From the NCBI GenBank assembly GCA_947561395.2, contig OX387193.1, forward strand, positions 35,414,255 to 35,478,254: DNA of 64,000 bases. The letters are read 5' to 3'. Shown one piece after another: positions 2,530 to 63,190 of the stretch. The translations under genes and the position numbers were made by a program. How positions within the stretch are numbered: position 1 is the first letter of the stretch; the number at the start of each line of letters is the position of its first letter. Source of the DNA: Buxus sempervirens. Taxonomy: Eukaryota; Streptophyta; Magnoliopsida; Buxales; Buxaceae. Below the pieces are notes generated by a model. It searched no databases and was not told the DNA's origin. It saw only the letters and a program-made list of their open reading frames with translations.

Positions 2530-2665
2530 GAAGTCTGGCAGTGTAGCCGGCCTGAGGTGCCGGTTACACACAGGTCACTGTGTATCCGGCACCTTTAGCC
2601 GGCTACACGTAAGCTTGTGTTGATCCGGCCTGAGTTGCCGGATCAACACACAGAAGACTTTTTTC
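2530..2665. repeat. GC-rich block of TCCGGC/GCCGGA inverted words in T LTR
   Basis: Several short words such as gtatccggc, agccggctacac and gttgatccggc alternate with their reverse complements. One clean hairpin is gttgatccggc (from 2619) facing gccggatcaac. The block lies on the 3' side of the minus-strand LTR. A second block with the same words is at 3690-3930 in the same LTR. Confidence 0.7.
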
Positions 2666-3668
2666 GGATTTTTTGCACTGGGGTTGGGTTTTTAATCCTC
2701 CCAGGGTGTTCCAGAGGTGTTGTGGGCTCCTGTGTGAGCCCACATTGGTTCTGGGAGTGGGTAATCTCCCCCGCTATGGCTTCTTTTTGGGGGTCTTAAA
2801 GTCAAAGCCAAAGAGGATGGCTGAGGATCCAATTCCTCTCCCCTTTAGACCAAACTTAGCAAATGGGCAGGGACTTAAGTGTCCCTGCTTTGGTTTCTTC
2901 TCACTCTCCCAATTATAGCAATCATCAAACAGAACTAAATAACATGGAGATCATCTACTATACTCAGGTGCAAGAAAGTAAAGAACCAAATGCCTCAAGT
3001 AATACTCATACCACAGTCATGCAAGACCGAATCACACATCTTACTAGAAAGTGTCTAAAGAAAGGACTAGGGGGGATTAGATTGGGATACAGTAGAAGAG
3101 CATGCTGAAGGGAACAAGCTCCCCCATAAATAATCGAGATAAAGCTCAAAACAGCACGTTAGAAGATATAAAAACATGCAGAAATAAGACTCTCATGCTC
3201 CTATGAAAACAAACGTGGACCCCTTTACCTTGGGAGACTTTCTTATGGCATGAGAAAGAGAGGAAAATAGCCAAAATACATGCTAGAAAGGTGTTACAGC
3301 AAGGGATGAACAAACACTTTCATATTGGCTCAAAACATGCTAGCTTTCATATATGTTAAATAAAATACAGCAAGGAGATATACCTTAGGGTCAAAACCCT
3401 GGAAGGAGACGTGTGGAGGCTCCTTTCGAGCTCAAATAGTGGCTGGAGCACTCCTCCTCAACACCAACAGCAGCCTCTTCTCCTTCTTCAACTTCTTGAG
3501 TGAGGGGAAGAAGAGAATGGGGAAGGGTAATATGGTCAAGCAAGGAGGTTCTTGGGTTTGGGGTGCAAGGAGGGGTTAAAGTGGGAGATTTCGGACCAGG
3601 TGTAGTGGGGGAGAAGAGATGGAAACAGCCAAAAGAAAGCACACCCCGGATATGAGCTGCTGGTTTGC

Positions 3669-3676
3669 TATTTATA
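3669..3676 (-). promoter_or_regulatory. Putative TATA box of T LTR copy 1
   Basis: TATAAATA on the minus strand, about 810 bp into the LTR. The solo T LTRs have TATA boxes at 26983-26989 (minus) and 46250-46256 (plus), so the position within the LTR is similar. Confidence 0.5.
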
Positions 3677-3689
3677 GACACATTAATGT

Positions 3690-3930
3690 ATCCGGCAACT
3701 CAGGCCGGATACACTGAGGCTTATTCATATCCGGTCTTCATGACCGGATACACAGAGCTTTCTTTATATCCGGCACTTAATTCCGGATACAAACATAATC
3801 ATTTCAAAATTTAATGTCGCCGCGAATCTGTCGGGCGATCTTGCGCGAGAAAATCTCTGTATCAGGTCTTCAAGTCCGGTCATGAAGGGGAGCTAGTGTA
3901 TCCGGCACATGTGGCCGGATACAAATCGAA
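3690..3930. repeat. Second GC-rich inverted-word block in T LTR copy 1
   Basis: Repeated tatccggc and gccggataca words in both orientations, for example gtgtatccggcac followed by gtggccggataca near 3896-3921. It lies just upstream of the putative TATA box (read on minus), unlike the block at 2530-2665. Confidence 0.65.
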
Positions 3931-4482
3931 AAATTACGGATTTGCCCTTCGACTTGACCGATTCGATTGATTCGACCGATTTGACCCTTTTGGATATCTA
4001 CAGATCGCCCATACGAATTTTTTATATTTAAGATTTAGTCCCTGAGATATTTTTCTGCGTTGGTCGCCACGTGCGCAGTTCTTGCGCCACGTGTGCAGTT
4101 TCTGGCTTTGCTGCCCGGAAACTTCGACAGATCATATCTCTTTCATCCGAACTCCGATTTGAGCAAACTCAATTGCGTTGAACTCATATCGGAGCCCTCT
4201 ATTTAATGACATAGGGCTAAACACTTGGCACGGGTTTTGAGGAAAAGTCAACTTTCGGCTCTCCCTCAAGTTTGACCGGCCCACAGAACCCTCATCCGGA
4301 CTCCGATTCCTGCAAACTCAGTTGCGTTGGACTCGTGTCGGGATTCCCTATCCACTGAGATAGAGCAAGGCGGCCAATTATCCTTTGATCAAAAGGTCAA
4401 ATTTCAACCCCTTAGGGTTTGACTTTCTATTTAGGGTTTGCATTTTCGGCTCTTTCGGGAGCGCAAAAATGAGGTGCTTACA

Positions 4483-6044: not shown

Positions 6045-6490
6045 TGTAAAATCCCAAATTTTTAATAACATTAAAAATATTAGATTTTGTTGTTAATTAG
6101 TTTAATTAATGGAAAATCTTAGAAATAGAGAAAAGGGAATTATTTAAAATATATATATAATAAACTAAGTAATATAGGAGAAATTATTAAAAAGGGCAAA
6201 TCCGTTAATTTAGTTTCATTAGTGGGGTTGGTGGTTTGGTATTGTAGCAAGCAAGGGTAAATTGGGGATTTTACAAATTAAGTGAGGAAGGAGTAAATAT
6301 AAGTGAGTATTATAATACTGGTCTATAGAATTTATTAGCAATGTGTTTTAAGAACTATTTTTATTTAGTAAGGAGCTAATATAGGTGATTATGTAGAGAA
6401 TAGTTTCATTAGATCAAACGGCTGGGAGGCTGCGCATGTAGGGAGATGTGTGGGTGAGCATGCATCGAATCATGAGTTGGGTAGGGTGAG

Positions 6491-6775
6491 TATAAATACT
6501 CAAGGTATTCGGTGCGTAGAATTTTCGCATACTTTGAGTTCGAAGAAAACTGCGGCTGGAGTTCTAGGGTTTTGGAGAGGAGCAGGCGTGAGGTTTCCTG
6601 TCGATCGAAGTGTTCAGGATCAGAGGTTCGGTCGATTTGTCTGTGAGATCAGATCTGGAACTTTTGGGATCGGAGGTGAGCGGCAGAGATTTTGGAGTGA
6701 GAATCGTTGCCGTTGGTGCTCAGTTGAAGCCTTGGAGTTGTTGAGCTTGGGGGTATTCGAATCAGGTGAGTAGCA
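6491..6775 (+). promoter_or_regulatory. TATA box and splice-donor-like site of K LTR 6045-9157
   Basis: TATAAATA at 6491 is followed 275 bp later by CAG|GTGAGTAGCA, with GT at 6766-6767. The TATA box, the donor and their order recur in other K LTRs. A 107-codon frame from 6450 to 6773 covers most of this leader but is not matched by an equivalent frame in the sister copies, so I do not call it a gene. Confidence 0.55.
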
Positions 6776-7039
6776 CTGATTTTCCTCCGTTTGATTGAAG
6801 TGAATGCATGAGTTTAGATGAGAGTGGAGGTTGCTTGTATTATTATTGACTGCATATTGTTTTACAATGATTTTGGGGGTGAGAAACATGATCCTTATAG
6901 AATTAATTTTGATGTGGTTTTAAATGAATGTTAGAGATGTATGGAGTATAGATTCTCTGTTGTGGAAGGTTAATTTCTGGACAGTCATGGCTGGATTGAA
7001 GTTACAGTGACTAAAAATGGTTACCGAGAAAATCAGGTA

Positions 7040-7150
7040 GCATCCACTGGGCTGCCGCCCACTATTTTACCTTGGTGGCAGCTTGGCGCATAGGAAGATG
7101 TGGATGCGCCAACCTCGCGCCAACTATCCTGAGGTTAGCGCACCCACCCA
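7040..7150. repeat. GC-rich inverted-word block in K LTR
   Basis: ggcagcttggcgcat, gcgccaacctcgcgcc and gaggttagcgcac form a compact GC-rich stretch inside AT-rich DNA. The equivalent block in the sister LTR is at 31735-31870. Confidence 0.65.
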
Positions 7151-7343
7151 AATGTTTACCTTAAGTGCGGCTAATTGTATACAACCAAAATTTGATGGTT
7201 TTACATCATAAAAACTAACCTATGGAAACTAACTTAGTGTTATTGAAATGTTAGGATGCTTATTAGTTTATGAATTTGTATAAACCTAGGTGTAGATGGA
7301 TCAAATGAGTTTGAATTGTTGAAAACAGCCCCTTAATTACATG

Positions 7344-7402
7344 AAAGACATTTAAGTAAATGTCCTGTGTATTTATTGCTCCATTTACTTAAGTCTTTAC
7401 AT
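7344..7402. repeat. Conserved hairpin (aagacatttaagtaaatg arms)
   Basis: Left arm aagacatttaagtaaatg and right arm catttacttaagtcttta are reverse complements apart from a 2-nt bulge, with a loop of about 22 nt. LTR 51222-55609 keeps the same hairpin at about 53003-53070 although it belongs to another subgroup. 37503-41629 and 30562-33615 keep only one arm. Confidence 0.7.
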
Positions 7403-8359
7403 ATAAATAAGGTTTTACCCCCTCCCTCCATTTGGAACCAATAAAAATACTTCCAAGGTCCAATTCCCAGCCAATAAAAAGTCAACTTTCCAGTTCATGC
7501 CTAAATTTCCAATTTTCCCGGTTTTTATCAAAAGTCCCGGTTTGGGTTTGATACCCAGATGAGTGAGTCAGAAGCCCATAAAATTCTAGGAGATGTGTTT
7601 ACCCTTCAATAGACTACAACCAAAATTTGAGCCCGAAACTCCTTGTAGATTTGTCTAGAAACATTATATACCAAAAGTCAATGTTTTTAACCAGACTTAG
7701 AATATTTTGAGGTCCAAAACTTTTTGTCTCGGAATTGATTGATTTTTGGTATGGAGACCTTATAGGGGATCCTAAGACTATTCTACTCATCCAAAATGTT
7801 TTTCTGAGGTTTTTATAACATTCGTTTTGATTGATTTGGATTATGAAAGCGAAATTGAGAATCTAGGAGCTATTTTGCTGATTTATGTTTAATCGAAGTT
7901 TGGATGCTGTAATCGTTTCTATATAATGTGCTTTCTTCTGAAAAGTTAGTTTTGAAACCATATTTGTTTTGCTGAAATACATCTACACTATTATGCTAGT
8001 TCATCTTGGAATGCACGGTGCACTTAAGGAATGGTTTACATGAATATTGTTTTATATCGGTGGCCGGTTTAGAATCATATCTTATTCTGTTTTGGGAAAT
8101 TATTTGAATATTTACTTTGAGTACTCCATGAGGGAGTAAGCTGGTCCTGAGTGACCCATGATAATCAGCTGTTGTGATAGATTGTCGTTATGTTTTATGT
8201 TGGATTTGCATGTTATCTTCTCGGTTAAGTTAAAATGCTGTTTCGAGATTGTTACTGGTTTAGCTTGTCCTAGATCCAGAGTCTAAGCTTAGTCATGTAA
8301 TGTATTTGCTTTATTGGTGTAATGGCATTGCCATGGAGTGTTGCCACGACCAGTGTAGA

Positions 8360-8485
8360 GCAGCCAGAACCCTGAGTAGGCCTGGTTGTCAATGCCAAAA
8401 CCCGGTGAGTAGGCCGGCATTGGATGACGAAACCCTGAGTAGGCCGTCATTTCAAAGTGTCCGAAACCCTGAGTAGGCCGGAACT
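8360..8485 (+). repeat. Fourfold aaaccctgagtaggcc word cluster in K LTR
   Basis: Four near-copies of aaccctgagtaggcc are separated by short words (tggttgtcaatg, ggcattggatgacg, gtcatttcaaagtg). The same cluster occurs at 32960-33080, 15725-15835 (reverse), 24105-24200 (reverse), and split at 51165-51221 and 55610-55680. Confidence 0.7.
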
Positions 8486-8910
8486 GTGTACATGGAGGTG
8501 TGGATGTCGTTCTGGCATGTTGATTAACCAATATAAGCAACTACATGACATTGACCAATGTTGGTATTTGATTTTGTTTGATGTGATATGTTTTATTCGC
8601 TACTCTATTGGTGCGGAGTGGCCCATGATAAACACTCTAGTATTTCGAAACGCTGAGTTATTTGAAATTATGATTTCATCGATGTATGGTTACCTGGTTA
8701 TACGTGATTTCATGGATACATTTGAGATTTGACACCGATGTTATTAATTGGGGTTATATGATGGATTTCTACGTTTATATCGATTTGACTGCTGGAATGT
8801 TGTTGTATTACTCGAATTATATGTGTTATCATCACCGTGTATGTTTTGTAACCGTGGCATGTTTTAGGACTGAACTAAATGTATTTGTGCATGCAGGTGC
8901 TGCTCACTGG

Positions 8911-8952
8911 GATATTTGTATCTCATTCCGTATTGTTTTGTTTTGTTTTCAG
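8911..8952 (+). promoter_or_regulatory. Conserved hairpin and splice-acceptor-like site near the LTR 3' end
   Basis: gatatttgtatctc (a gagata/tatctc-type hairpin) is followed by a T-rich run and TTTTCAG|CTGCTCC with AG at 8951-8952. The same pair is at 33366-33410 and, with the GAGA hairpin, at 55923-55960. The order is as expected for an intron end, but splicing is an inference. Confidence 0.45.
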
Positions 8953-9162
8953 CTGCTCCTGGAGAGGATGATACTTGCGGGTAGTTACTTAGTCATGTGA
9001 GTTTATTTCAGTTTGGGATTATTTTAGCGCACTCTGTTATATAGTTATTGTTATATTCATGTTTTTCCTTCACTCTGATATTGCGGTCCTATGTTACATG
9101 CTAACCTCTGGAAACGTGTTACGGTTTAACTACGTAACTCGGATCTGGGGCGTTATAGTTGC

Positions 9163-9997
9163 TACCCTGATGGACTCTTGGGTTTTAAGTTGATTTTATT
9201 CTTTTTACTTTCATCAATCGCATTGCATCCACAGTACATTCACAAGATGAGGTTTATTAGAAGCAATAGGTGGGGAAGGACACCATGTCTGAGGCATCCG
9301 CTTACAAGGGTCTGAGCCAAGTACTAGACCCTCGTGTACCACGGCAAGAAACCAGTGGTGCTAAGGAATCCAAAAACCTGGGGAGATGGGTTTACCCTAC
9401 TTTCCCTGGCAAGCCACGGAAGCGTAGGGCTAATACCATCCCAAAAATAAGTTCATTGAAACAGAAGGGTGGCTGTTAAAGAGGTCAAGGTTTTGGTAAA
9501 GAAGATGCATCATTCCACAAATCCATTCACAAGTACATTCAGGTCGGATCATTCACAGAGTCTCCCTCATGTGTGTCACCCCACGCATTTTACGAAGACT
9601 GAAAAGAAATCTATCCATGGTGTGGTGGGTACCCATGTGTATAGTGGGGCTAAGTGCTGTGTCTAATCCGGTGAGTTTTGTTTGGATATTTGATTGGTAA
9701 AAGGTTCCTTGCTGCCTATTTTGTAGTGAAATGCAGAATTGGCACACAATACAATGTTCCGGGAGAATCCCCAGGTAAGTGGAAGGGACTCAGGGATCCC
9801 ACTTAAACTCCACTTACCTTAGGCAATTATCTCGTCCATTTGACAAGATTCCCCAGAACACGCAGTTGCACGTATTCTACGTTTCACTAAGGTCAGGCAG
9901 TAAGGTTTCCCTTTGAACCAGTCTATATCCCTTAAGTTGACTCTTTCTAAACAAGGTCTGACTGGGTCGAGAATTCCCCAGCGGAGTCGCCAAGCTG
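9163..9997 (-). mobile_element. Internal region of T copy 2, right part, with primer site
   Basis: This continues the T leader after the solo LTR and matches about 670-1484 of copy 1. The primer-site motif lies at 9974-9992 (minus strand) next to the LTR edge at 9998. No coding sequence is seen. Confidence 0.6.
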
Positions 9998-11995: not shown

Positions 11996-12002
11996 TTGGG
12001 CA

Positions 12003-14064: not shown

Positions 14065-14180
14065 GTAAGCGCCAGGTGCTGCTGACCGCTTAGAGGTCAG
14101 CGCTAGCAATGTTTATAGGGGGTGGCTTGCTTGGCGCTAACCCTTGCTGACCTCTTGGAGGTCAGCGCCAGCTGAATTCC
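14065..14180. repeat. GC-rich inverted-word block in K LTR
   Basis: agcgccaggtgctgctgacc, agaggtcagcgctagc and gaggtcagcgccagc: the words gaggtcagcgc and gcgctgacc/gctgacctc recur in both orientations. Surrounding DNA is AT-rich. Confidence 0.65.
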
Positions 14181-16429: not shown

Positions 16430-16700
16430 CTTGCGCTGACCTCTAGCGCTAGGCGCGAGGTCGGCGGTAAGTAAATACTTGAACTACATGTCGCACTTAC
16501 TTAAATTGGACTAGGCGCGAGCTAGGTGCAATATAAGCGCTAAGGAAATCCGCTCGGCGCGAACCAGGCGTGAGCTTGGCATTAAGAAAAATCCGCCCGG
16601 CGCAAGACAAGCGCGCGATGAGCACGAGCTCGGCGGTAAGGAACTTCGGCCTTTCGCCAACTCAACCCAGTTGGCGCTAGGTAGGCGCCAACCCGGCGGA
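16430..16700. repeat. Large GC-rich inverted-word block
   Basis: Words such as gcgctgacctc, gctaggcgcgaggtc, ggcgcgaacc and gcgcgagctcggcgg recur through 270 bp. The first 35 bases nearly match a block in the unrelated T LTR at 25763-25800, in the same orientation relative to both elements. Confidence 0.75.
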
Positions 16701-20390: not shown

Positions 20391-22774
20391 GGTAACGCCC
20401 CGAACCCAGGTCAATGCAAAACCAGCACCCAACCCCGAATCCGAAGTGCTACTGGACCCATAAACAACATCATCCAAATACCAAACCAAAAATAATTCAT
20501 TCTATATTAAACATCAGAGTGCGGAAATATAATGTCTACAATTACCATAAATATGCTAAAATATAAAATGCCATCAAAACCAATAAATCAAGTCTGGTAT
20601 GATAAAAGGGTTCTAAATCTCTCACTCTCGGTACATCAAGTCCATAAATAAATAAACAGTAATTAATCAAGTTCTTCATCTCCCAAAAACAACCTCAATA
20701 CTAATCAGGGTAATAGTAATCCTCCGGATGGAAATCTGTGATCTCGCCCTGAGTATCGAAAGTCAAATCCCCCACTCACGTATTAGCTGAAAAACACAAC
20801 GAAAACAAACAGAGTGAGATATGAATATCTCAGTAGGTAACACGATGCATGCTAGAAACAATTTACATACATAAAGTAATCATTTGTCATGCTCGATAAA
20901 GATACAATTAGAAAGGTTTCATTTTCATCAAATAATAGTAGTTAAAGAAAGATAAATCAGCATATATTTCCATGATAGCTAAAGTCAAGTCAATTCCATC
21001 GTATCTATAGTAAACAAGGTAACCAAATCCAATCAATGTGATAAAATGTACACAAATACACATGTGTCAATGCAGGACTCGTGAAGACAAATAAGTCTTT
21101 GAATAGACACTCTTCAATGCTATGCCACCACGCAACTTATGGGCGAAGCTACTAAGACACTCAAATCCAAGTCTTATTTTGACGATAAGAGCCATAGTCA
21201 TCAACTTATTGCGCACGAAATTCACAGAGTTTGGCATGAACCACCAACATGCAGCCCCTGAATCAATACATGGAGATGGCCGCTGATCCGCATGTACATG
21301 GTCCTCACCAACAATCATAACATGAAATGATGATCCTATAGACATGAGACCTCCCAGAGCAAACTAACTTGCAAAGGAAGCGCGATCGCAAATGGGAGTA
21401 ATCAACCCAAAATAAATACCCCTTTGCTATCTAGCTTATTCTATGGATCCATATTCAGCTATGCCCACTAGACACTAACAACACCAGGACTCATCCGACA
21501 TACATATAAGGTAACAGTGCCTAGTGGCATATAGAGTTTTGTCACTTAAATTTTCCCAAAGTTAAATTCTGAAAAGTGGTTTTCTGGTATAAGGTCTCTC
21601 TCTGTGAAAATCATAATTTGATGATGTTTGAAAATTAATTTTTCTTTAAGTGAAAGTCTCAGTCAAATAAGTTTTTTTTTTAAAATTCAAAACCTCCAAA
21701 TTCTTAATTTGTTTTCAAGTCAGGCAACTATCAGACCTAAATAATTCTCCAATTTATTTGTGTGGCAAAAGAAATATTTGTATAGTTGAAAGCCTTTTAA
21801 ATTAGTTGATTTAGATGTTAAAATCCATATAAAAATCATTTTGTTTTGAGTTGGATATTAATTTGTGAAAAATCGGCTTCTGGCTTTGGTCGCTCAGCAC
21901 TGTTGCCTAGGCGACCTGGCTGGGCGGCTGTTTTAATTAAGCGTAAACTTTCACTTCAATGGGCACTCAGGTGATCGCCCAGGGGATCCCCTAAGCGACC
22001 TAGCAATTTCACTGTCGCCTAGCCCATCGCCTAGGCAATGGCTAGGCGACCTAAGACTCTGTGAATTCCCATAAACAAACGCCTATGATCGCCTAGGCAA
22101 TCAAGCTTGGCGCTCATTCGATTGCGGCTAATCCGACACTAAAAACTGTGATTTTCTCAATATCCAGTAACATCTACATATATATTCAACTATACTTTAA
22201 CAAACCATACATATACCTACGATTAAACATGCATTATGATCAAAAAGCGAAGAAAATAGAGATCATGACAAAACGGGTTGTCACCTACCTGTTCGATCAG
22301 TTTCTTCTTCCTCCTATTTCTTCTTGCGTTGGTGACTATCCTTCACTCTTCACAGGGACAGAAGACTTCTCCTGAGATACAGAGAAGCTTGAAGATCAAC
22401 ATGAATCGCCTCCTTCTTCTCCCTTCTCCCTCTCGGTTTAGTCGTTCTTCTCTACAGCCGCCAAATATCCAAAACAATACGATTAGAATACGTTTAGTAT
22501 TCTCCTAAGTATAAAACCCTATTTTATTCTCCCTCGATCCTGTGCATCTCACCCCTATCAACTATTACTCCTCCAACCAATCAAATTAGAAAATCACCTT
22601 ATTTTAATTCTTACCTCAATATGTCACGATCCAACGGTCAAATCTGCATCAATTTCCTGATCTCCTCCATCAACGTTATTACCTATAATTATAATTAAAA
22701 TTCATCAATAAAATCCTCAAATAAATACTAATTACTATTTAATTTAAAATTCTGAATATTTTCAGGGTCTTACA
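20391..22774 (-). mobile_element. Solo K LTR (subgroup II), minus strand
   Basis: TSD ttaac at 20386-20390 and 22775-22779. The left edge reads GGTAACGCCCC (first T changed to G) and the right edge CAGGGTCTTACA. Length 2,384 bp. It is inserted in an LTR of its own subgroup. It has a donor-like CAG|GTAGGTGACA near 22288 (minus) and a word block at 21885-22135. I do not see a clear TATA box. Confidence 0.88.
21885..22135. repeat. GC-rich word block (gcctaggcga type)
   Basis: gttgcctaggcgacc, ggtgatcgccc, gcctaggcaatggctaggcg and gatcgcctaggcaatc: inverted words around CCTAGG in a 250-bp stretch, quite different in text from the blocks of subgroup I but at the same LTR position. Confidence 0.65.
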
Positions 22775-25759
22775 TTAACCCTATGGATCCCCATGTAGCT
22801 ATGCCCACTAGACACCAACAATAACAATTTTCTCAAACGAACCTGGTTCAATAATAGTGCCTAGTGGCATATAGGGTTTCCTAAAGCTCATACTCTTTCC
22901 AAAGTTAAATCTTCAAGTAGTTTATGGTGTAAAGTTTTTCTAGTGAAATTCAAAAATCATGATACTTTAAAATACCTTTTCCTAAGTAAGAATTTTCAAG
23001 CAAATAAATTCAGGTTTCTAAATAACCCAAAAATCCCATTTTATTTTCAAATCAGCCAATCCTTTTTGCAAACAGTCCAAAATCATTCTTCAAATTATTT
23101 TAAATACAAAAGATCATAAAATAGTTGTAAACACCTAAAATGAGTTGGTTCAGATATTTGTATTCATTTAAAATTTATTTTGGAATAATATTTCAATTTG
23201 TGAAAAATCAAGATTTGGTGTGGGTTGCTCAACCCTATTGCTCAGGCGATTTAGTTGGGCGATCTAATATTTTAAAACCAAAATTTCAAACCAACGGGCG
23301 CTCAGGCGATCCCCTTGGGCGATGTAATATCCTGAATTTTTGAATATAATAATATAATTAAATAAATCTCAAAATATTTTGAAATAAAGATTTATTCTAA
23401 ATATTTGGAGGAATAATATGAAACGCCCTGGATCCGAGTTACATAGAGAAACTATAAACTCATCTCCGGAGGTTCATATATAACACAGGATCGCAATATC
23501 AGAGTGAAGGAAAAACATGAATACAACAAAAACTATATAATCAGAGTGCGCTACAATAATCCCAAACTAAAATAGTAAATACAGAATACAACTCTACACT
23601 CACATAACCGAGCAACTACCCATAGGTATCGTCCTCTCCAAGAGCAGCTGAAAACAAAACAAAACAATACGGAATGAGATACGAATACCCCAGTAAGTAG
23701 CACATGCATGCACAAATACATTTTTCAAAGTTATGAAACATAGATCGAATAATACACCGGTAACAATGGCGATAACACGATTAATCCCACAATAATATAA
23801 CAGATAAAGATGATATAGCTAGTGTAATTCAACATGTAGGCCAAGCAATTAATGTTAGTATCAAATCACAAATATAACCTTAAAGTCACTTATAACCAGA
23901 TAACAACACTTCGATGAAATAATAATCTTTGGAAAACTGAGTGTTTATCATGGGCCACTAAAAACCAATTGGAGTTACAAATACCGATAAAACCAAAACA
24001 TCGAGGCCAATATCATGTAGTTCACTTATATTGGGTAATTTACATGCCTGAGCGACATCCAAGCCTCCTAGAACACAATCCGGTCAACATAGATTCGGTA
24101 CTCTGAAATGACTGTCTACCAAGGAACTTTGTCATCCAATGTCGGCCTACTCCGAGTTTCGGTATTGACAACCCGGCCTACCAAGGATCACGGGCTGCTC
24201 TACCCTGGTCATGGCAACACTCATGGCCATGCAATTACAGCAATAAAGTCAACACATCACATTACAAAGCTTAGACTCTGGATCCAGGACAAGCTAGACC
24301 TTCAACAAAATAAACTAAACAATTAAACCAACCTCTGGTAGCAAATAAACCAACCTCTGGTAACAAATAGACCATCCTCTGGTAGCAAATATTTACTAAA
24401 AACAAAACATCTTTATCATGGGTCCCTCAAGACCAGAACAATACTCTATGGAACTCCAAGTGTATATTCAAAACCAAAGAACAATATTCAAAACAATCGG
24501 TGTAAACAAACAACTCAAAGAAACCTCTTTTATAAATTCTGTTCAGAAAACTAACCTTTGATAAAATTCAGTTCAACAATATCATGATCTGAAGTTCAAT
24601 AATAAGATATGTGTGCGCGCATCAGAAACGCGGCACGAGAAAATTCGGAGTCGCCACTGCATGATGAGGTGCTGGCGGACACTTGGGTGCCTAATCTTGT
24701 CTATTAAGGCTTTGGTCTGCAGCTTTGAGATTCTAAGTAGGGTCTCGGTTGTGGTCCGGGGAAGTCCGTAGACACCTCGGTCCACCCCGTCGGGTGACGG
24801 GTCCTTTAGGTTTATCCTAGTTTGAGTCAGCTCACTTATTTTCTCACCCGATTCCTAATCCGATATGCAGCTTGGTTAAGTCTGGTGGGACCACCTAAGT
24901 GGTGTGGGTCCCTTTGATTGCTTTTATCTTGATTAATTAGGTAATCTGAGTCTGGTTGGGTGGGCCCCATTGGAAGACCCACTGTGTCCTTGGTGGGCTT
25001 AGTCAAGCCTATGTACCCTTGTGGGCCTCAGTCTAGCCTGAGAGGCCCTTTGGGCTTTGGTTAGTTCAATTGGCTTTTACTTTTGGTTTCAAATTGGTTT
25101 TAAGTGGTTTTCATGTAAGGGTGGGCCGGATTGGTTTGTGGGCCCCTTAGGTGGGCCCATATGGTAGCCAAGTAATTTAGTGGATTTATCTTTTTAAGTT
25201 TCCAAAAATGGGTTGGACACTGGGCTTGGGGCCTGTAGCCCTGATTAGGGCTTGAAAGCCTAAGTTACGGGAAGTTAGGGTTTGCACCCTTCCTTGGTTC
25301 GGTTGGTGGGCTTTGGCGGGCCCGGTAGGCCCTTGCCCTTGGTCTCGGCCAAACCACTCATTTCAAACATCAATTCACCAAGTTTGGTTCTGGTGGGCCG
25401 CATTGGGTTTGGCCCACCCCGATAGATTGGTTCATTTATTTATCTTGATTAGGCCACATGCATGCATTCTATTGTGTTCATTGGGCTTGGTGGGCCCCGT
25501 TGGAGGGCCCACGGGAAATCAAATTGGACCGGGGGTCCAAGTCCCATGTTGGGTTTCCGGGTGACCCGCAAACCCTATTGGTTCATTTGGTTCGGTTTGA
25601 AGAAGTCACCTATATCCAGCAAAATCATAGAATATATAGAAATCACGAAATACACAAAATATACAAAAATCACATAATCTGGGTCCAAGGAACGAGTTGG
25701 ACGCGCGGTGAACAAACCCCCGCGGTACAGTAAAGGGCATTTTCGGGTTTTCAAAAAAG

Positions 25760-25975
25760 AGGGTGCGCTGACCTCAGGCGCTAGGCGCGAGGTCAGCGCG
25801 AGCTGGGATGACCGAAAACAGCGAAAAAAGGCACCCGTGCACGCACTCGGCGCGAGCTCAGCGCGAGCTCGGCGGATGCAAAGATGCTCCGCGCGAGCTT
25901 GGCGGATGCAAAAATGCTCTGCGTCAGCTAGGCGCGAGCTTAGCGCGAAGCTCCGCGCGAGCTTAGCGCATACCC
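25760..25975. repeat. GC-rich inverted-word block in T LTR
   Basis: gcgctgacctcaggcg, ctaggcgcgaggtcagcg, cgcgagctcggcgg and similar words. The opening 35 bases nearly match the K LTR block at 16432-16470. Confidence 0.75.
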
Positions 25976-39500: not shown

Positions 39501-40127
39501 ATTAGTCTCGCGATTAATCGCAAGACTAATCCTGTCCTTAACAGAAACTGATTTTCTGGGGTTTTGACTCAGGATTAATCGCCCATCTCCAGGGTTAATC
39601 GCCAGCTCGGGTTCTTAAAATTTTTTGGCTATTTTCCAACACCAAACCCATACAAACCACACCCAACCTTTCTAATACCAAATGAGATAATTATAAAACA
39701 TCCAACATGCTCAAAAACACCTCCCAACACAGGAATCCATCCCAAATCCTCATGAACATAAATCCAACATATAAAACATCATTCAAGATACCAAACTCAA
39801 AACCTAATCTGAAATATAATCAATAGAGGTTGCAAACCCAAGGCAATCAATAGAAAAATACACAATATTGTTATACAACCCAAACCCTACAAATATTTGA
39901 AGCAAAACCTCACATGCAAGTGATTTCCCAGTTTATTCAAACCTTAGGAGAGAGAAATACGAAAATCCATGGCAAATCAATATAAACTAAACAAGATAGT
40001 TAGATAAACCAAACCCTACGAATTTTCGAGGCAAAGCCCAACATGTAAGAGATTTTCTTGTTTAACCAAACCCTCGGAGAGAGAAATACGAAAATCCAAT
40101 AAATTCATTTTAGTTTGAAGGGTTTGC

Positions 40128-47189: not shown

Positions 47190-47370
47190 CCTCCTAAAGG
47201 ACCTGTCGGAGTGATCCCAGTCGGAACCGGAGCAAAAAGGCGAAAACAAGCAAAAACCGCATACTCAGAGCGGTCGGCACATGACCGCAATTGATCTGCG
47301 GTCCGGTCTAAACCGCACTGCATCTGCGGTTCAAACCAAACCACAGAGCAAGTGCGGTCATATCCTTCAA
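47190..47370. repeat. gcggt/accgc word block in T LTR
   Basis: gagcggtcgg, tgaccgcaattgatctgcggt, gtctaaaccgcac and atctgcggttc: a sixfold alternation of gcggt and accgc. Its position in the LTR matches the TCCGGC block at 2530-2665. Confidence 0.6.
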
Positions 47371-49895: not shown

Positions 49896-52800
49896 ACACT
49901 TGAAACTGGAGGAACTACATATTTTCTTGTGTTTTTTATGATTGATCGTATTGGTTTTTTAGTTGGATTTCATTGGAAAAGTTAGATGATTATAAAGTTT
50001 TGATTTGGTGATTTGAATCTCTCTTTAAGAATCAAGAAAAGTGTTGTTCATGGGTTGTTTGATTTAGAAAGAAACCTTAGTTAAATTTTAATCACCAAGA
50101 TTTGTTTAGCATCTTTTTATTCCGGTGTTTTGGTTTTGATCTCTAAGTTTAGTCGTGAAGCATGTTTTTGGAAAAACATATTTCGAACGTGGATTTTGGA
50201 TGAATTTTAGAGTCGTGATATAAAGTTGTTTAGATTAAATTCGAGTTATGTTTAAATATGTTTTGGGGATGGTAGAAACATAGAAAAATTGTTACAGAGG
50301 TCTAAATTTTGGTTAGTCATAGAGTTTTGGAATTAACAGAGAGTCGCGAGTCGTAAAGGGTGTTCGCCAAGCTGCCACCAACTTCTGTGCTCTTAGTGGC
50401 AGCTCAGCGCAAAGACTGTTTTGTATTCGCCGGACTGGCGCCGACCTGGCGCCAAGGGAATTGAACTTAGCGCGAGTCATATTTCAGTTCCGCCGACTTG
50501 GCGCTAACCTAGCATCGAGTGCTTGAGGTCAGCGCACCCACCAAAATGTTAAATTGAGTGCGGCTGACCAATCCAAACCCAATTTTTATAATTTGAGGCT
50601 TCAACCTTTTAGCCAAAGAGTATATTAGGATATTAGAAATATTTTATCTGTTCAAAACATTTGAGAAAGCATTAAATCAAATTATTGGTATTTCTATAAG
50701 TTTCCGAAGTGATAATTGAAGGAATCTGAGTAGGTTATTTTGTTGTTCCTGACACTATGGGTTAATGATTTAATTTTCTTTTATGTATTATATTGTTTTC
50801 CGGTTGTAAATTTGTTTAATCTGGGTTTGCTTGATTTTAAAGTGCTGAATCGAAATTTTAAAATTTATCTTGGTGTGGGTAAATGAATTTTACTATCAGT
50901 TGGACATGTGCTTTGGATTGGAATATTTTACTGAGATATCATGAGATACTGTTCTGGTCTGGAATGACTTGTGATGAGTTGTATTGGGTTATACATGATG
51001 GTGACCAGTGTTGGTTATTGTTTTGCAAATGCTGAGTTTTATGAAATTGTTTTACTGTTTTGGTTTAGCTTTACCTAGATCCATGTCTAAGCTTAGTAAT
51101 GTGATGGTATTGTTTATTGATGTAATTGCATGGCCTTGTGTGTTGCCACGACCGGTGTCGAGCAGCCAGAAACCCTGAGTAGGCCTGGTTGTCAATGCTG
51201 AAACCTAGGGAGTATGCCGGCTGTAGCGCCCCAGATCCGGGTCTGCCCTATCACGGCACTAACCCGTACCCGAGACCTACTTATGGGCCCGATAGAATCT
51301 GATTAACACAATAAATCCTGGGCAATCACAAAGTAATTATCAAAGTGCATGACTAAAGAAGCATGGAATAAAAACTTCCATATAATCAAAAGATCATTTG
51401 TGCTATAATCTCCAAAACATGATATACATGTGAACAAAATACAACTAAGGCAACTAACCATTCACAATGATCTCTCCAAAATATACAGACGTGTACAAAA
51501 GATATCTCCCAAGAGTATAAGTCCAAAAATGATGTTTACATCTCATATACAATCCCCAAGACAAAATACAACATCATAAAAAAGAATCCTACTACGGGTA
51601 GTAGTAGCCCTCAAGCCTGTACTCAAGCTCACCCTCAATAACTGCCCCGGTACGCGGCTCACCAAGCGGATCTGAAAACAAATCCGGTAAAACAAAACAC
51701 TCGTGAGACATAAAGTCCCAGTAAGCAGCAAAAATGCATGTAGAGAAACAGTTTATGCAGTTTTATAACATCATGATGATATTCACAATTATATAGTACT
51801 AAATGCAAACCAAAACAGTTCAATCGGATATAAAAGAAATTCCAATTCAAATATCTCAATCAAGTAACTCGGGAAATCAAATCAACAAATACGATCAAAT
51901 ACTGTAAACATGTCTTGTTAGGACTCGTGGTTAGCGTATTTGTAAATTAGGTTAATGACCAATATCCATTTGCCACCTACACGACTTACAGAGAGAAGCC
52001 TAGCTAGGGCATCTCAGCAAGCGGAGCACCCATGTATGGGCTAGCAAGTGACAACCAAGGTAATAATCAAGGTTAGGTGGAATGCCCCATCCACTGCCGG
52101 ACCAAACCATATGAATCAGAAGGACGTCCCACCGATACCCCACGGTGGGTGGTTGCCGCAACACTTCTATGCCCCAAGAGGGCCTCACTGATACCCCACA
52201 GTGGAAAGCTGTATGGAGAAGGAAATTAACGCTAACAAGCCAACACTAACACACAAATTAGACTCACTGTGAATCCACACTAAGAACAATGTCTAATTAG
52301 ATGACTCACAATTTAAACCAAACAAATCAAATCAAAGAGTAAAATCAGTGCTTAAACCAAAGCCAAGTGGAATTCCCCATCCACTATTAAATCAACCGAG
52401 GCCAAGTGGAATTCCCTATCCACTATTGAATCAACCGAGACCAAGTGGAATTCCCCATCCACTACCAATCCATACCAAGGGCAAGTGGAATTCTCCATCC
52501 ACTGCTAATAAAACCATAGGCCAAAGCCTTGACAAATCATATAAGAGTTTTTCGACATCGCTTTCATAAATCCAAGTAAATCCCAAAACGAAAGTCATAA
52601 AATCCTCAAAACACATTTTCGATGAGTGGGTTGATCTTAAAAATCCCAAATAAGTCACCATACCAAAATTCAATGGAGTCCGAGACAAAAATTTTTGGAC
52701 CTAAAAAAATATTCTAAGTCTGGTTAAAAACGTTGACTTTTCGGTGTAGAATTTTTCTAGACAAATCTACAAGGATTTTGGGGCTCAAATTCTGGTTGTA

Positions 52801-53730
52801 GTCTATTGGAGGGTATACAAATCATCTAAAACTTTCTAGGCTTCTGAATCACTCATTTGGATATCAAACTCAAAAAGTGGCCCGTTTTGAAAATCGGGAA
52901 AACTGGAAGTTTAGGCATAAACTGGAAAGTTGACTTTTTATTAGTTGGGAATTGGGCCTTGGGAGTATTTTTATATGTTCCAAATGGGGGTAAAACCTTA
53001 TTTACATGTAAAGACTTAAGTAAATGGAGCAATAAATATACAGGACATTTACTTAAATGTCTTTCATGTAATAACGATGCTCTGCCGAAGGCTTGGGTTG
53101 TTTGGAAAAGGGTTGAGGCGAAAAAGGGTGAAGAATTCTCAAAAATATAGGGTCAATGTGCGGACGTTGAGGTTGGACGTGCGCGCGTTGAGGTAATACA
53201 CATGGCAAAGTTCGGGCGTTGAGGCTTAAGGTGCGCGCGCTCAGGTTTACAACAAGGTTGATGCGCGCGCTAAGGCTCTAGATTAATCACCCAGGTTAAT
53301 CCTGATTCACGATTTAAGATAACAGAGACTTGTCTTTTGGGGGTTTGGCTCAGGATTAATCATAAATTTTCAGGATTAATTGCCACCTCAGGATTTCAGA
53401 TATTTTTGGCTATTTTCGACTCAAAACTCATACAACTCCTTCCTAACCTTTCCAACACCAAATTTGATGATCATACATCATCCCAAATCCACAAGAACAC
53501 AAATTAACACGTGAAACCTCATTCCAAACACAAAATTCATACCAAAATCTGGAGTATGATTAATCTAGGTTGTAAACACATAATAGTCAATGGAAAACAA
53601 ACCAAGAGTGTTATAAATCAAAACCTACAAGTTTTAGAAGCAAATACCATCATGCAAGATCATTTCTTCAAAATCAATCAAACCCTAGAGAGAGAATACG
53701 AATTTTGTAATTCATTTTGTTTTGAAGGGT

Positions 53731-53906: not shown

Positions 53907-53971
53907 TGCCCAAGTTTTGGGTTTTTCAAATATGCCCCTAAACAAAGCTTTTATTCAACTAAAACCCTAGG

Positions 53972-55345: not shown

Positions 55346-57470
55346 TACACTAAACTCTAATTTTTCAGAATTTGATTTCCAATTCACTAAAGCTAATTGG
55401 AAAGTATCCTAGACAATTGAATTTGAGAAATAACATTAACTAAGCTTTCCTTACTAACCCTCATAAAGTTCAATTGATTTCTCTAAAATCCTTAAGAATA
55501 ATCCCACACTTACTTCATCTTCATAACACAAATACTTAATTAGTCTAATAATCACACTTTAGATAATTAATCTTAATAATTAAGATATAATCTGGGTCGG
55601 GGTTTTACACCGGCATTGGATGACGAAACCCTGAGTAGGCCGTCATTTCAGAGTTCCGAAACCCTGAGTATGCCGGAACTGTGTACATGGAGGTGTGGAT
55701 GTCTCCTTGGCATGTCAATTAATCAATTCAAACAATAGTCATGGCATTGACCGTTCGATGTTTTATCGGTATTGTTATTGAAATATGATTTGATAATATT
55801 AATGGAATTGGATTTAAACTTTGGAATTATCCTTGTTGATATTGTCGTTGGTTTAATCATACACCTCATGATTTAATTTATATAAACATGGACTGATTTC
55901 ATGCATGCACTTTGCTACTTGTTGAGATTTATTCTCACTCCGGTTTCTCCCATTTTTCAGGTACTCTTGGTGAGGATGTCAAGTTGTGGGCTAGTTGTAG
56001 CTGGGTAGTCTATATAGATGTAGGATTGCTCATGTAATTGAAATCCTTGTATATCATAATTGTTGATTAATAAAGAGAATTTGAATTCAAGTTTCCGCAT
56101 TTACTCTGATTATAAAGTTAGAATAAGTTTTAAATTATTCCATATTTTAATTGCTTTTGTTGCTTACCATAACACCTTGGGTTTTGGGAATTGGACCCGG
56201 AACCGGGGCATTACATAATAACATATCAATTAATAATGTAATTGTGAAACCCACACGATTGTGGAAAAACAAACCAGGGAATGGACATACTTCTTAATAA
56301 CACCCACCAAATACAGAACCTTATCTGTATCACTAAATCCGCCCATGCGGTAAACAATAAATTAGGCATCTGCCTTGTCACACCAGTGACCCAAAAACCA
56401 ACACAAGATGTACCAAGTCATATGTCCAAACTCCAGGTTTCAACGGCAAAGTAATCCAAGTATATACATAAATCATTCGGAGCTCAAAGCATGCTCAGAT
56501 AGTTCAAATACAGGTGTAGGAACTTCTAAAATCAAGTTTTGTTTAAAAGGCAATAAATCAATACATTAACAATGTTCCTAACTCTTGATTAAAACTTCTC
56601 CATTTGTATTATCTATTAACATCCAACCTTCCCTCATTTAGAACCTAAGGTGTCAAAAGGTATTAATTCTGTTATTTAGTTCTTTCAGAAGGTAACTTAG
56701 ATCTATATTGAAGTTTAAGAATATGTTAGGTTACCCAAAATCATATCCAAATAGGTTGCGACCTCTTTTTACTTAAGATATATCCAAAAGTTTCATATTT
56801 ACAATCATCGTCCCAAATCACTATTCTTTAATTCAAATTTAATTCTGCCACTTTTTAAATCTCAAATTAACCTAGTTACAGGTGTTACAAATTTAGAATT
56901 TACAGAAAAATCATTAAAAATTAAATCTGGGCACAAATCCCAAAATCTGGAATTTCTAACATCGGTCGCTCAAAGAAGGGCTTGAGCGACTATTTTAGCA
57001 GCTATAATTTCATGTTCTGTTTTAGATACACAGGCAAGTTGCCCATGGTTGTTCTCGAACAGTGTATCAAGCGACTTATTCCAAATGTTCTGGTTTAAGA
57101 TATACAGATAGGGCGCTTGAGCGACAGTTCTAGCGCTCTGCCCAAAACTCAATTTTTCTGGGTTTTTCATAATTTCCGAAACTTCTCAAATTCCTATGGC
57201 TTTAAATTGTTCCTTAACATCTAAATTTCATTCCAAATTACTTTTAAGACAATCCTAAATAAATCTTGGTGATTAAAATTTATCTAAGATTTCTTTCTAA
57301 ATTAAACCACCCATGAGCAACACTTTTCTTGATTCTTAAAGAGAGATTAAAATCACCAAATCAAAACTTTATAATCATCTAACTTTTCCAATGAAATCCA
57401 ACTTAAAACCAATACGATCAAACATCAAAATCACAAGAAAACATGCAGTTCCTCCAGTTTCAAGTGTTTT

Positions 57471-59454: not shown

Positions 59455-59660
59455 TGGTAAGGGTGCTCGATGGGTCGCTCGAACCGGCTTCGAGCGGCTA
59501 GAAATTTCACTCTCGGGTTCTCTGTTTTGACATCTCGCTAGAGCAGTTGCTCGAGCGATACTCGAGCGGCCACGACTTAAATCACTTCCTGAACTACCTA
59601 AAACTACCGCCTGATGCCCGCTCGAGCGACTGCTCGAGCGGCTGGGTTTTCTTAGCAGCT
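59455..59660. repeat. CTCGAGCG word block in K LTR
   Basis: gctcgagcgactgctcgagc and similar words: at least eight CTCGAGCG/CGCTCGAG-like words in 200 bp, each able to pair with its neighbours. Confidence 0.75.
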
Positions 59661-60834: not shown

Positions 60835-61075
60835 TTAACAAGTGCCCAAGGTATGGCTCGAGCGCCCACTACGGCGCTATGTTATATGTTGGGTCACTCG
60901 ATATGAAGCTCGAGCTCCTAGTCAGGCACCTCTCCTATGTGTTATTTTTGGAAATTGAAACCCGAGAGTGAATTAGTCGAGCACCAGATGTTGCTCGAAT
61001 GTTGGAGCAAGCGACCAAACCCAGAAACCAAGGCTCAAGCATTGAGCGCCAGGTCGAGTGCCCAAGCCAGTTGTC
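60835..61075. repeat. ctcgagcgc/gagcgccc word block in K LTR
   Basis: tggctcgagcgccc, gaagctcgagctcc, attgagcgccaggtcgag: words related to those at 59455-59660 and 62985-63190. All three copies are subgroup V. Confidence 0.65.
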
Positions 61076-61584
61076 TGAAATTTAAGTTTTGATCTAGATT
61101 TTAAATATAAAATGATTTTTGGGCAAATCCAACTCATGTACCAAATAAGATTTAAGTGTTTTCGTTGGCCAAATAATTTTATATGATTTATTGAAGATAT
61201 TGGGTATGTTTTGATGGAATAGGTGGTTTAAGACTAGAATGGTGGACTTGAGGATTTAAAAATTATTTTTATCAATTCTACTTGATTTGAACGGTTTTCC
61301 AAGATGGTTTAAAATATATCTTGATCCTTGGAATTATTCAGATTTATATATAACAGTTTTTGGTATCTTGGTTGACAATTCCTTGTTTATAACATTAGGA
61401 AATTCTAAAGTAAATAGGATTATGTATGTGATGAAATACATTGGATTATGAGGTTTATCTTGTGGAAAGTACTTTTATTCTTGCAAATATTATTAAGCCA
61501 ATTATTGTTATACACGTGAGTCCTTATCGGTCATGTTCTTAGCCAACTAATATCACACGTTAGCCATTATCGAACGTGTCTTTA

Positions 61585-61850
61585 TGACACATCCCTGATC
61601 CTTATTATCAAGGATTAGTGATACAATAGTCATCAGTCTCTCTAAATGGTTTGCCCAAAATAAAGAAGCTGAAATCCCTGATTAATCACCTGATAGATCA
61701 TTTAATAACATGCAACAAAATACACAGCGGAATCTAAAATCTACGGTTGTGCAATTAGACTAAAGCAACACACCTAAACACATGATGTGAAATACATAAA
61801 CTGAGTCAAGGTGATAAAAGTTTCTATATACATGTCCAAAATGAGAACAA

Positions 61851-61912
<62 letters not shown>

Positions 61913-62115
61913 CTAATCAAGTTGTCTCTTCTCTTTTCTTTTCGCTCTCTCCCCAGGCCCCTGACCTGTAATATAAAATACTTAATGAGCAAATAGCCCA
62001 GTAAGGAAATCTGCTAGCAATGATAACTTAAGTATGCGATGAGAATAAAATAATGGACAATTTCATGGACAATAGAAAAGCCATCACATACCACGAGAAT
62101 TAGTAAGATGTTCTT
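61585..62115 (-). mobile_element. K-like LTR, minus strand, partial
   Basis: It starts TGACACATCCC after possible TSD cttta (61580-61584). It has the reversed LTR 3' module: gagcaaatagcccagtaagg near 61987. It is cut at 62116 by a plus-strand LTR, and its other end is outside the window. The family is inferred from position and edge only. Confidence 0.5.
61854..61908. repeat. (CT)n microsatellite, 55 bp
   Basis: About 27 perfect CT units. It gives rise to poly-Leu/Ser and poly-Arg/Glu frames that are not genes. It is the only long perfect microsatellite in the window. Confidence 0.97.
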
Positions 62116-62984
62116 TGTGAGACCCCAGATTCCTAGATAATTAGCAAACTCTAAACTGTGTAATTTATTGTGTAGATGAAGCTGGAGAAATCCAAATTTG
62201 AAGCCAGCCAAGTGGCTAAGTCTAGGCTCATCAGTAATATATGAAGGTAGGCATCCCTTCTATTTGAGCAATCCTTAGGATTATTAGATAATTTATTAAT
62301 GTAAGAAAGAATAGCTAAATGGTAATTTCATGTGCAGTGGAAGGAGTGGCAAGATGGTAAATCTTGGTGTCTTAAGGGAGAAGGGCAAAATTGGAATTTT
62401 CCTTAGAGCATTTGGAGGAAAATTTGCTAAGTATGGGAATGCGGGTTTTGCCCCATTTGTATGAACCTAACCCCATCCCTTCTCTTCTCCATATTCCCTC
62501 TTCTCCTCCACTCTCCTCTTCCACACTCTCCTCTCTACTCCCCATTCTCTCATCATCCATCTTGTTAATGAAGTGAGGGAAGAAACCCTTGCAAGAAAGG
62601 AAGAAGAAGAACAAAGAGGGATTTTCATTTGGGTGAGATTTGGTAAGGTTTGTGAAGAACCAACCAAGGAGCTCATCAAGTGCTATTTGTGGCTTGCTAT
62701 AGAAGCAAGGAGGCTTTCTTGTTTGCTTGCTAGAGGTAAGCAACACCCTCCCAACCTAGATTTTCGTTTTTCTCATTTTCGTATGCAATGTGGGAAAATT
62801 GGGGGTTTTTAGTAAACTTGATTATCTTTGCAAATAGGAGAGGGATTTGTTGGGGGTTTGATGAGTAATAGGTGACCACACATGCTAGAGACAATTTAGA
62901 GACCAAAAACCACAGAAAATAGTGAGATATGAAAAACCCTAGAAAATCACAAAATTCGGATTTTTCGCGACCTGAGAAATTTCT

Positions 62985-63190
62985 AGGGTGCCCGACAGAG
63001 CGCTCAAGCGCAATGTCGAGCGCCCGTTCAAAAATCTAGTTAAGGCGAGGTTGCTCGTTGGTGCTCGGGCACCCTATCGAGCGCCCCGCCTGTGTTTTTT
63101 TTTTAAAAAACCCAAGAGAGTTGAAGTTTGGCCTAAGCCGGGCGCCCAAACCAATGCTCGAGCAAGCACTCAGGCACCCATGCCCAGATT
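62985..63190. repeat. GC-rich word block (gagcgccc type)
   Basis: agcgctcaagcgcaatgtcg, gagcgcccg, tcgagcgccccg and ctcgagcaagcactcaggc: inverted words as at 60835-61075. Confidence 0.65.

What the first reader, a model, noticed from the sequence alone, without database searches (positions are those of the whole stretch)
2530..63190. GC-rich inverted-word blocks recur in almost every LTR, in two unrelated families
Each K LTR carries one 100-280 bp GC-rich island within AT-rich DNA, always downstream of the donor-like site. The islands are made of one or two short words and their reverse complements. Positions: 7040-7150, 14065-14180, 16430-16700, 21885-22135, 23215-23322, 29945-30115, 31735-31870, 34480-34790, 37005-37200, 39365-39610, 50340-50550, 53145-53400, 56960-57140, 59455-59660, 60835-61075, 62985-63190. 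The T LTRs have them too: 2530-2665, 3690-3930, 25760-25975, 47190-47370. The word differs strongly between copies (CTCGAGCG, CCTAGGCGA, GGCGCGAGC, TCCGGC, gcggt) while flanking LTR text is alignable. A block whose position is kept but whose text is replaced suggests a fast-evolving functional element: a structured RNA, a binding-site array, or a silencing decoy. I know of no described module of this kind, but I could not search.
Basis: partly seen in the sequence, partly recalled or inferred. Interest (0 to 1): 0.8.

Follow-up and report, generated by a model that had tools for sequence, protein, structure and literature searches.

The report
Palindromic protein-site arrays in plant retrotransposons
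The long repeats of two kinds of plant jumping gene carry GC-rich arrays of short mirror-image words, spaced in ways that fit proteins sitting along the DNA helix; such arrays were known in other plant retrotransposons, but this spacing and the sharing of a word between two element families look new.

Summary
The blocks are real. 19 of 20 fold better than dinucleotide shuffles (7 of 40 flanks do), and median CpG o/e is about 1 against 0.29 in flanks. K is a Ty3 chromovirus of Del/Tekay type with 794 LTR-primer-site junctions; T has a Ty3-type gag.

The claim that text is replaced while flanks stay alignable fails at short range. In 40 young copies of one subfamily the block diverges little more than its flanks (pi 0.030 against 0.024 and 0.022), with almost no indels. 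Text differs mainly between subfamilies, whose flanks differ too.

The geometry points to DNA sites rather than RNA. K words repeat at 10.4 bp, the helical repeat; flanks do not. T has 28,460 TATCCGG-N-CCGGATA dyads (control 11); in 90 listed sites the spacer is always 9 and 48 of 58 neighbour distances are 39 bp. They end 11-12 bp before TATA in 97 of 100 listed sites. A K-type hairpin occurs inside T LTRs.

Prior art: palindromic CpG-island boxes of Sireviruses (PMC2829016), plastic CpG islands of Del LTRs (PMC4029996). Best reading: regulatory protein-site arrays, a new variant of a known kind. The protein is unknown.

The parts
6045..9157 (+). K-type LTR (solo), TGTAAAATCCC...GGGGCGTTATA, inserted in T-type sequence
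   Evidence: ends and flanking T alignments; GTTGC on both sides read
6489..6504 (+). TATA-box-like site of the K LTR at 6045-9157
6764..6776 (+). donor-like motif AGGTGAGTAGCAC between TATA and block
7040..7150 (+). K block, GCGCYNACCTC / GAGGTNRGCGC-type words (lineage D)
   Evidence: z -2.76
14065..14180 (+). K block (lineage E)
   Evidence: z -3.16
16430..16700 (-). K block (lineage A) with terminal hairpin shared with T block 25760-25975
21885..22135 (-). K block (lineage F), CCTAGGCGA words; strand inferred from self-alignments
   Evidence: z -4.23
23215..23322 (-). K block (lineage F); strand inferred from self-alignments
   Evidence: z -1.99, direct words only
29945..30115 (-). K block (lineage B)
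31735..31870 (+). K block (lineage D)
   Evidence: z -3.92
34480..34790 (-). two short GC clusters with GGCGCCTACCTC..GAGGTTGGCGC-type palindromes and an AT-rich middle (lineage E)
37005..37200 (+). K block (lineage G); strand inferred from self-alignments
   Evidence: z -3.02; similar to lineage B block
39365..39610 (-). K block (lineage H); strand inferred from self-alignments
   Evidence: z -4.74
50340..50550 (+). K block (lineage D)
53145..53400 (-). K block (lineage H); strand inferred from self-alignments
   Evidence: z -3.70
56960..57140 (-). K block (lineage I)
   Evidence: z -2.43
59455..59660 (.). K-type block, GCTCGAGCG words, orientation not settled
   Evidence: z -3.43
60835..61075 (.). 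K-type block, orientation not settled
   Evidence: z -2.59
62985..63190 (.). K-type block, orientation not settled
   Evidence: z -4.44
1482..4482 (-). T-type LTR, start TGTAAGCACCTCATTTTTGCGC at 4482, inner end approximate (TGGCGACTCCG near 1480); near-identical copy of 2240-2960 lies 11,484 bp away outside the window
3668..3677 (-). TATA box (CTATAAATAG) of the T LTR, just downstream of array 3690-3930
3690..3930 (-). T array of TATCCGG..CCGGATA dyads upstream of TATA, three of them at 39-bp spacing
2530..2665 (-). second array of related CCGG dyads in the same T LTR (39-bp spacing), about 1 kb downstream of TATA
25760..25975 (-). T-LTR block made of K-type (GCGCTGACCTC) words
47190..47370 (+). 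T-LTR block with TGCGGT/ACCGCA dyads, about 0.9 kb downstream of a TATA-like site

Best explanation
The blocks are cis-regulatory arrays of DNA-binding sites. A block holds several copies of one or two short words, many in mirror-image pairs, so that dimeric or multimeric proteins (host factors or element-encoded, unknown) can bind side by side. In K LTRs the words recur every 10.4 bp, so bound proteins would sit on one face of the helix; the array lies in the likely transcribed leader, downstream of TATA. In T LTRs one array of rigid 23-bp dyads, mostly at 39-bp spacing, ends 11-12 bp before the TATA box, as expected for a promoter-proximal activator or chromatin-opening site, and further arrays lie about 1 kb downstream. 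The word changes between subfamilies over long times, and one word module occurs in both K and T. Shown: anatomy, phasing, fixed spacing, word sharing. Inferred: protein binding, activation or protection from silencing, identity of the protein.
For: Direct-word spacing in K blocks peaks at 10.4 bp (z 5.8 over 11 lineages, 0 of 200 shuffles as high, 10 of 11 lineages positive; 9 lineages without A and B z 4.5, 0 of 200), while flanks have no significant period (best z 2.2 and 2.5; 74 and 38 of 200 shuffles as high). T: TATCCGG-N{4,14}-CCGGATA 28,460 sites against 11 for the reversed pattern; in the 90 distinct places among its listed rows the spacer is 9 in 90, with 40 distinct cores, and 48 of 58 neighbour distances are 39 bp (5 more are 78). 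CCGGATA-N{3,33}-CTATAAATAG: 658 sites (control 2), gap 11 or 12 in 97 of the 100 listed rows. A second T-type LTR (L093) has another word, TAACCGAAA..TTTCGGTTA, with dyad centres 38 and 39 bp apart, the last 23.5 bp before its TATA box against 22.5 bp in the window's T LTR. K word GCGCYNACCTC..GAGGTNRGCGC: 1,269 sites against 0; loops 2-4 or 13-14, about one turn apart. Strand tests do not favour the sense RNA. CpG stays at o/e about 1 in blocks against 0.29 in flanks, although C-to-T singletons per CpG are similar in block and flanks of young copies (0.23 and 0.25; only 12 flank CpG sites). In the 7 window K LTRs scanned for TATA, a TATA-like site precedes the block in 7.
Against: No protein, binding or expression data. 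Lineages E, G and I add little and K (60835) goes against the 10.4-bp signal, as do T blocks other than 25760-25975; lineage assignment and block limits were set by eye. Lineage A and B periods (11 and 10 bp) could be plain tandem duplication. Three of four T blocks, and the K blocks with a mapped TATA, are downstream of it, where a promoter-proximal role is less direct; two of those K LTRs also have a TATA-like site after the block and several genome LTRs had none by the pattern used. Copies share ancestry, so fixed spacing partly reflects descent; the text between dyad and TATA is itself conserved, and the outermost spacer pair of the T dyad pairs more than chance (21 of 40 against 14.1; p 0.06). 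Blocks also fold better than shuffles as RNA.
Confidence: 0.62

Rival explanations
1. Structured RNA: the array is transcribed and folds into hairpins that serve the element (packaging, translation, splicing) or feed Dicer as miRNA-like precursors and so attract silencing.
For: 19 of 20 blocks fold better than shuffles; aligned lineage A (9 rows) and B (8 rows) blocks have conserved structure beyond column shuffles (z -6.7 and -2.8 on the sense strand) with 12 and 5 double-change pairs against 6.9 and 3.0 in row shuffles; the free position N of the K hairpin pairs in 22 of 31 distinct sites against 11.8 expected, 0 of 20,000 shuffles as high. In maize Sireviruses palindromes are small-RNA hotspots (PMC10760457, PMC5311732 passages).
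Against: The antisense strand scores better in both alignments (z -10.8 and -5.0) and about equally block by block; arm mismatches are A-C rather than G-U on the sense strand (42 against 13, mostly from lineages A and B); T spacers are fixed at 9 and, beyond the outermost pair, do not pair inward; K words are helically phased.
Confidence: 0.2
2. Mutational by-product: slippage and template switching during replication or reverse transcription breed short direct and inverted duplications in a GC-rich spot, with no selected function.
For: Words within a block resemble each other in both orientations, and arm-copying mutation would also make the two arms match; the block differs between subfamilies; lineage A is a near-tandem 11-bp array.
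Against: In 40 young copies the block has almost no indels (2 minor gap cells against 119 and 15 in the flanks) and mutates like its surroundings; CpG is kept at o/e about 1; rigid spacing of T dyads; 10.4-bp phasing in blocks with different words.
Confidence: 0.13
3. The finding is only base composition: GC-rich patches in AT-rich LTRs.
For: GC and CpG are indeed high, and other CpG-dense stretches exist in the window.
Against: Dinucleotide-preserving shuffles lack the pairing, word repeats and phasing; patterns far exceed reversed controls (1,269 against 0; 28,460 against 11).
Confidence: 0.03

Closest known systems
Sirevirus (Ty1/copia) repeated-motif boxes, Bousios et al. 2010 (PMC2829016); maize follow-up Bousios et al. 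2016 (seen only as cited in PMC10760457 and PMC5311732)
   Same: Element-specific palindromic words repeated in the LTR, CGG-CCG core, forming CpG islands near the promoter; listed words include AATCCGGCTWRCCGGATT and AGCGGTASTACCGCT, close to the T words TATCCGG..CCGGATA and TGCGGT..ACCGCA.
   Different: K and T are Ty3-type; K arrays lie downstream of TATA and use other words; a term search of that paper for 'helical', 'periodic' and 'spacing' gave no passage on word spacing; the paper calls the boxes a Sirevirus-specific feature.
Plastic 5' CpG island of Del (Tekay) LTRs, Cruz et al. 2014 (PMC4029996)
   Same: K is a chromovirus with Del-like LTR length and U5 end (GGG at -8 to -10); [quoted passage not shown]
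   Different: That paper reports variability by length and identity; the terms 'inverted', 'palindrom' and 'tandem' have no hit in it. Here close copies show no excess indels in the block.
VANC target motif arrays of VANDAL DNA transposons, Hosaka et al. 2017 (PMC5735166, passages)
   Same: Short motifs repeated in noncoding regions, introns included, that diverge together between related elements; bound by an element-encoded anti-silencing protein.
   Different: DNA transposons; the term 'palindrom' has no hit in that paper; no VANC-like protein was looked for here.

Membership tests
Del/Tekay chromovirus (K elements) | Ty3-order pol with chromodomain | tested here: met
   pieces of one young K element (L079): RVT_1, RNase H, H2C2, SH3_Tf2-1 over cut-off; rve 31.0 and Chromo 24.9 bits, each just under its cut-off of 32.6 and 25.1
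Del/Tekay chromovirus (K elements) | long LTR with Del U5 end, GGG at -8 to -10 | tested here: met
   LTR length 2.3-3.1 kb where both ends were found (13 of 20 regions); GGGGCGTTACA followed by TGGTATCAGAG at 794 places against 0 for the reversed pattern (the pattern fixes the end)
Del/Tekay chromovirus (K elements) | phylogenetic place within the Del clade | not tested
   no reference tree built
Sirevirus repeated-motif boxes | element is Ty1/copia | tested here: not met
   K: Ty3-order pol with chromodomain; T: Retrotrans_gag and Ty3_capsid-like gag
Sirevirus repeated-motif boxes | palindromic word with CGG-CCG core | tested here: met
   T array TATCCGG..CCGGATA; K words differ (GCGC cores)
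Sirevirus repeated-motif boxes | array upstream of TATA | tested here: inconclusive
   met for 3690-3930; the other three T blocks and the K blocks with a mapped TATA are downstream
[quoted passage not shown]
   21 of 40 regions by a strict criterion; positions
[quoted passage not shown]
   slightly lower identity than neighbours within groups; pi 0.030 against 0.024/0.022 but few indels in young copies
VANC-type anti-silencing system | element-encoded protein binding the words | not tested
   no extra reading frame was searched for

The most novel reading that the evidence does not exclude
Plant LTR retrotransposons of unrelated lineages share an exchangeable promoter module: helically phased or rigidly spaced dyad-site arrays whose word can be swapped while the geometry is kept, read by host or element-encoded DNA-binding proteins that keep the LTR open against silencing, a retrotransposon counterpart of the VANC system.
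Probability: 0.22. Interest if true: 0.85.

Novelty: new variant of a known kind. Interest (0 to 1): 0.56.

Why it matters
Palindrome-rich CpG islands in plant LTRs have been tied to RNA hairpins and small-RNA hotspots as well as to regulation. The 10.4-bp phasing in K and the fixed 23-bp dyads in T point to proteins bound along the DNA. That turns an open question, what these islands are for, into a direct test: which protein binds a dyad present 28,460 times in this genome. The same word module inside two unrelated LTR families suggests that elements borrow, or converge on, one another's regulatory arrays.

Tried and rejected
Rapid replacement of block text: tested in four LTR groups, 21 and then 40 young copies of one subfamily and five inferred LTR pairs; block substitutions in the pairs were 1, 2, 3, 7 and 2 against 2, 0, 5, 14 and 3 in the two flanks together. 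Rejected for short time scales; only one subfamily was sampled that deeply.

Sense-RNA selection by G-U excess: the reverse was seen, resting mostly on lineages A and B; sense against antisense folding was p 0.049 for z over 27 K blocks and 0.38 over the 13 without A and B. Left open. The mutation spectrum of young copies shows no G-to-A bias that would explain it.

Escape of block CpGs from methylation: C-to-T singletons per CpG similar in block and flanks, but only 12 flank CpG sites. No conclusion.

K module in T as a one-off insertion: 20 of the 39 best matches other than the window's own run in one piece from T flank through nearly the whole block, at 68-75% identity, so it is an established T subfamily. 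Direction of transfer, and transfer against convergence, not resolved.

Clade of the plant: a 102-aa Rubisco fragment matches land-plant chains; the organisms behind the chain codes are recalled, and eudicot and rice chains score too close (208.9 against 205.3 bits) to decide. Whether this genome lies outside the monocots, to which Cruz et al. confine such Del islands, is unknown.

First counts treated the two strands of a palindrome as different; one search recounted them (31 instead of 35 distinct K sites, 40 distinct T cores over all 90 listed places instead of 46 and a chosen subset of places).

A count of a second T dyad word (AACCGAA..TTCGGTT) did not complete, nor one for ATACGGG..CCCGTAT.

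Papers: PMC4029996 outline and passages; PMC2829016 passages and one section; PMC10760457, PMC5311732, PMC11963269, PMC5735166 passages. That phasing and cross-family sharing were not found in print rests only on searches in one open-licence library. Recalled, from no call: that long-LTR chromoviruses are Tekay, that T is a Tat-type element, that TGGTATCAGAG is the initiator-tRNA primer site.
Full report
What was checked. The 20 listed blocks were read and tested against dinucleotide shuffles and against same-length flanks. 15 of 16 K blocks and 4 of 4 T blocks fold with z < -2, against 7 of 40 flanks; CpG o/e medians are 0.96, 1.16 and 0.29. The GC contrast is clear in K except 34480-34790 and weak in two T blocks. 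The observation therefore stands, with the limits given under the observation check.

What the elements are. The window is from a 676.5-Mb genome, a plant by a Rubisco fragment. K LTRs run TGTAAAAYCC...GGGGCGTTACA and are followed by TGGTATCAGAG; 794 such junctions exist, none for the reversed pattern. Inner pieces of one young K element carry reverse transcriptase, RNase H and integrase domains and a chromodomain just under its cut-off, so K is a Ty3 chromovirus; Del/Tekay fits by LTR length and U5 end (features from PMC4029996), without a tree. T LTRs start TGTAAGCACCTC and belong to an element with a Ty3-type gag; a 99% copy of its 2240-2960 stretch lies 11.5 kb away on the same strand, taken as the partner LTR.

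Where the blocks sit. In the 7 window K LTRs scanned, a TATA-like site lies at LTR position 161-740 and the block further down; a donor-like motif (at most 2 mismatches) occurs in 13 of 27 K-type LTRs or regions scanned, and where it and an island were both located the block starts roughly 150-450 bp after it. In the T LTR at 1482-4482, block 3690-3930 is just upstream of TATA and block 2530-2665 about 1 kb downstream; the other two T blocks lie about 1.0 and 0.9 kb downstream of a TATA-like site.

Turnover. Within four groups of related LTRs the block is a little less conserved than its neighbours, the U3/R part is at least as variable in groups A and B, and the U5 core is the conserved part there. 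In 40 copies of one young subfamily pi is 0.0303 in the block against 0.0244 and 0.0219 in the flanks (non-CpG 0.0279, 0.0239, 0.0199), with 2 minor gap cells in the block against 119 and 15. The block is thus not replaced on this time scale; [quoted passage not shown]

Words and geometry. Across K lineages repeated words are spaced at multiples of 10.4 bp: mean cosine 0.28, z 5.8, 0 of 200 shuffles as high, 10 of 11 lineages positive; flanks give z 2.1 and 1.3 at that period. Lineages E, G and I add little, K (60835) is negative, and of the T blocks only 25760-25975 shows this period. A hairpin word GCGCYNACCTC..GAGGTNRGCGC has 1,269 sites against 0 reversed and, in relaxed form, recurs in blocks of lineages A, D and E. 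In the 50 listed sites the two free N positions pair in 22 of 31 distinct forms (expected 11.8, 0 of 20,000 shuffles as high) and loops are 2-4 or 13-14 nt.

T arrays. TATCCGG..CCGGATA occurs 28,460 times against 11 reversed, with a spacer of 4-14 allowed. In the 90 distinct places among its listed rows the spacer is 9 in all 90; there are 40 distinct cores; 48 of 58 neighbour distances under 200 bp are 39, five are 78, three 77, one 38, one 103; of the inner positions only the outermost pairs above chance. Next to CTATAAATAG there are 658 CCGGATA sites (control 2), 97 of the 100 listed at a gap of 11 or 12 bp. A different T-type LTR, L093, has another word in dyads 38 and 39 bp apart, the last one 23.5 bp before its TATA box against 22.5 bp in the window's LTR. 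This is the clearest case of kept geometry with changed text, but it rests on one locus; the genome-wide count of that word did not complete.

Sharing between families. The T block 25760-25975 ends in a 35-nt hairpin that matches the end of K block 16430-16700 at 32 of 35 positions in the same LTR orientation; 17 of 213 cross-lineage block pairs beat all 200 shuffles, and six of these pair this T block with a K block. None of the other three T blocks is among the K-T pairs listed there. The T copies that carry this block are an established subfamily.

DNA or RNA. Conserved pairing exists in aligned lineage A and B blocks, but the antisense strand scores as well or better, arm mismatches are not G-U on the sense strand, T spacers are rigid, and K words are helically phased. 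I therefore prefer arrays of protein sites, at 0.62, and keep RNA hairpins at 0.2. The recount did not change these odds.

Prior art. Bousios et al. 2010 (PMC2829016) describe element-specific palindromic boxes that form CpG islands upstream of TATA in Sireviruses; Cruz et al. 2014 (PMC4029996) describe a plastic 5' CpG island in Del LTRs, absent in their eudicot sample; Hosaka et al. 2017 (PMC5735166) show motif arrays bound by an element-encoded anti-silencing protein in DNA transposons. What I did not find in the searches made is the helical phasing, the rigid dyad array in a Ty3-type LTR, and one word module in two families. Hence 'new variant of a known kind'.

Noticed in passing
window 9996-12004: A 2-kb inverted repeat (about 91% between arms) made of T-type sequence.
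   Followed up: no
window 40386-41343 and 54076-55330: Arrays of a 22-bp GGGGGTACCTTAG-type unit inside two related regions.
   Followed up: no
window 27301-27815: A 148-bp unit, 3.5 copies, in the T LTR between its start and TATA.
   Followed up: no
genome C1: 8881915, 8942942, 9003970: Three K junctions 61 kb apart in the same orientation, suggesting a tandem segmental duplication; the same spacing shows in T promoters at 8865086, 8926113, 8987140.
   Followed up: no
L083 about 235-413: Another dyad word, ATACGGGC..GCCCGTAT, near a K junction, probably from a neighbouring element.
   Followed up: partly
L080: In the T element whose LTR is in the window, gag lies about 4 kb from the 5' LTR and no pol domain was found in the two further pieces of L080 scanned; it may be non-autonomous.
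   Followed up: no
K blocks, lineages A and B: Arm mismatches are A-C rather than G-U on the sense strand, and the antisense strand folds more stably in most of them.
   Followed up: partly
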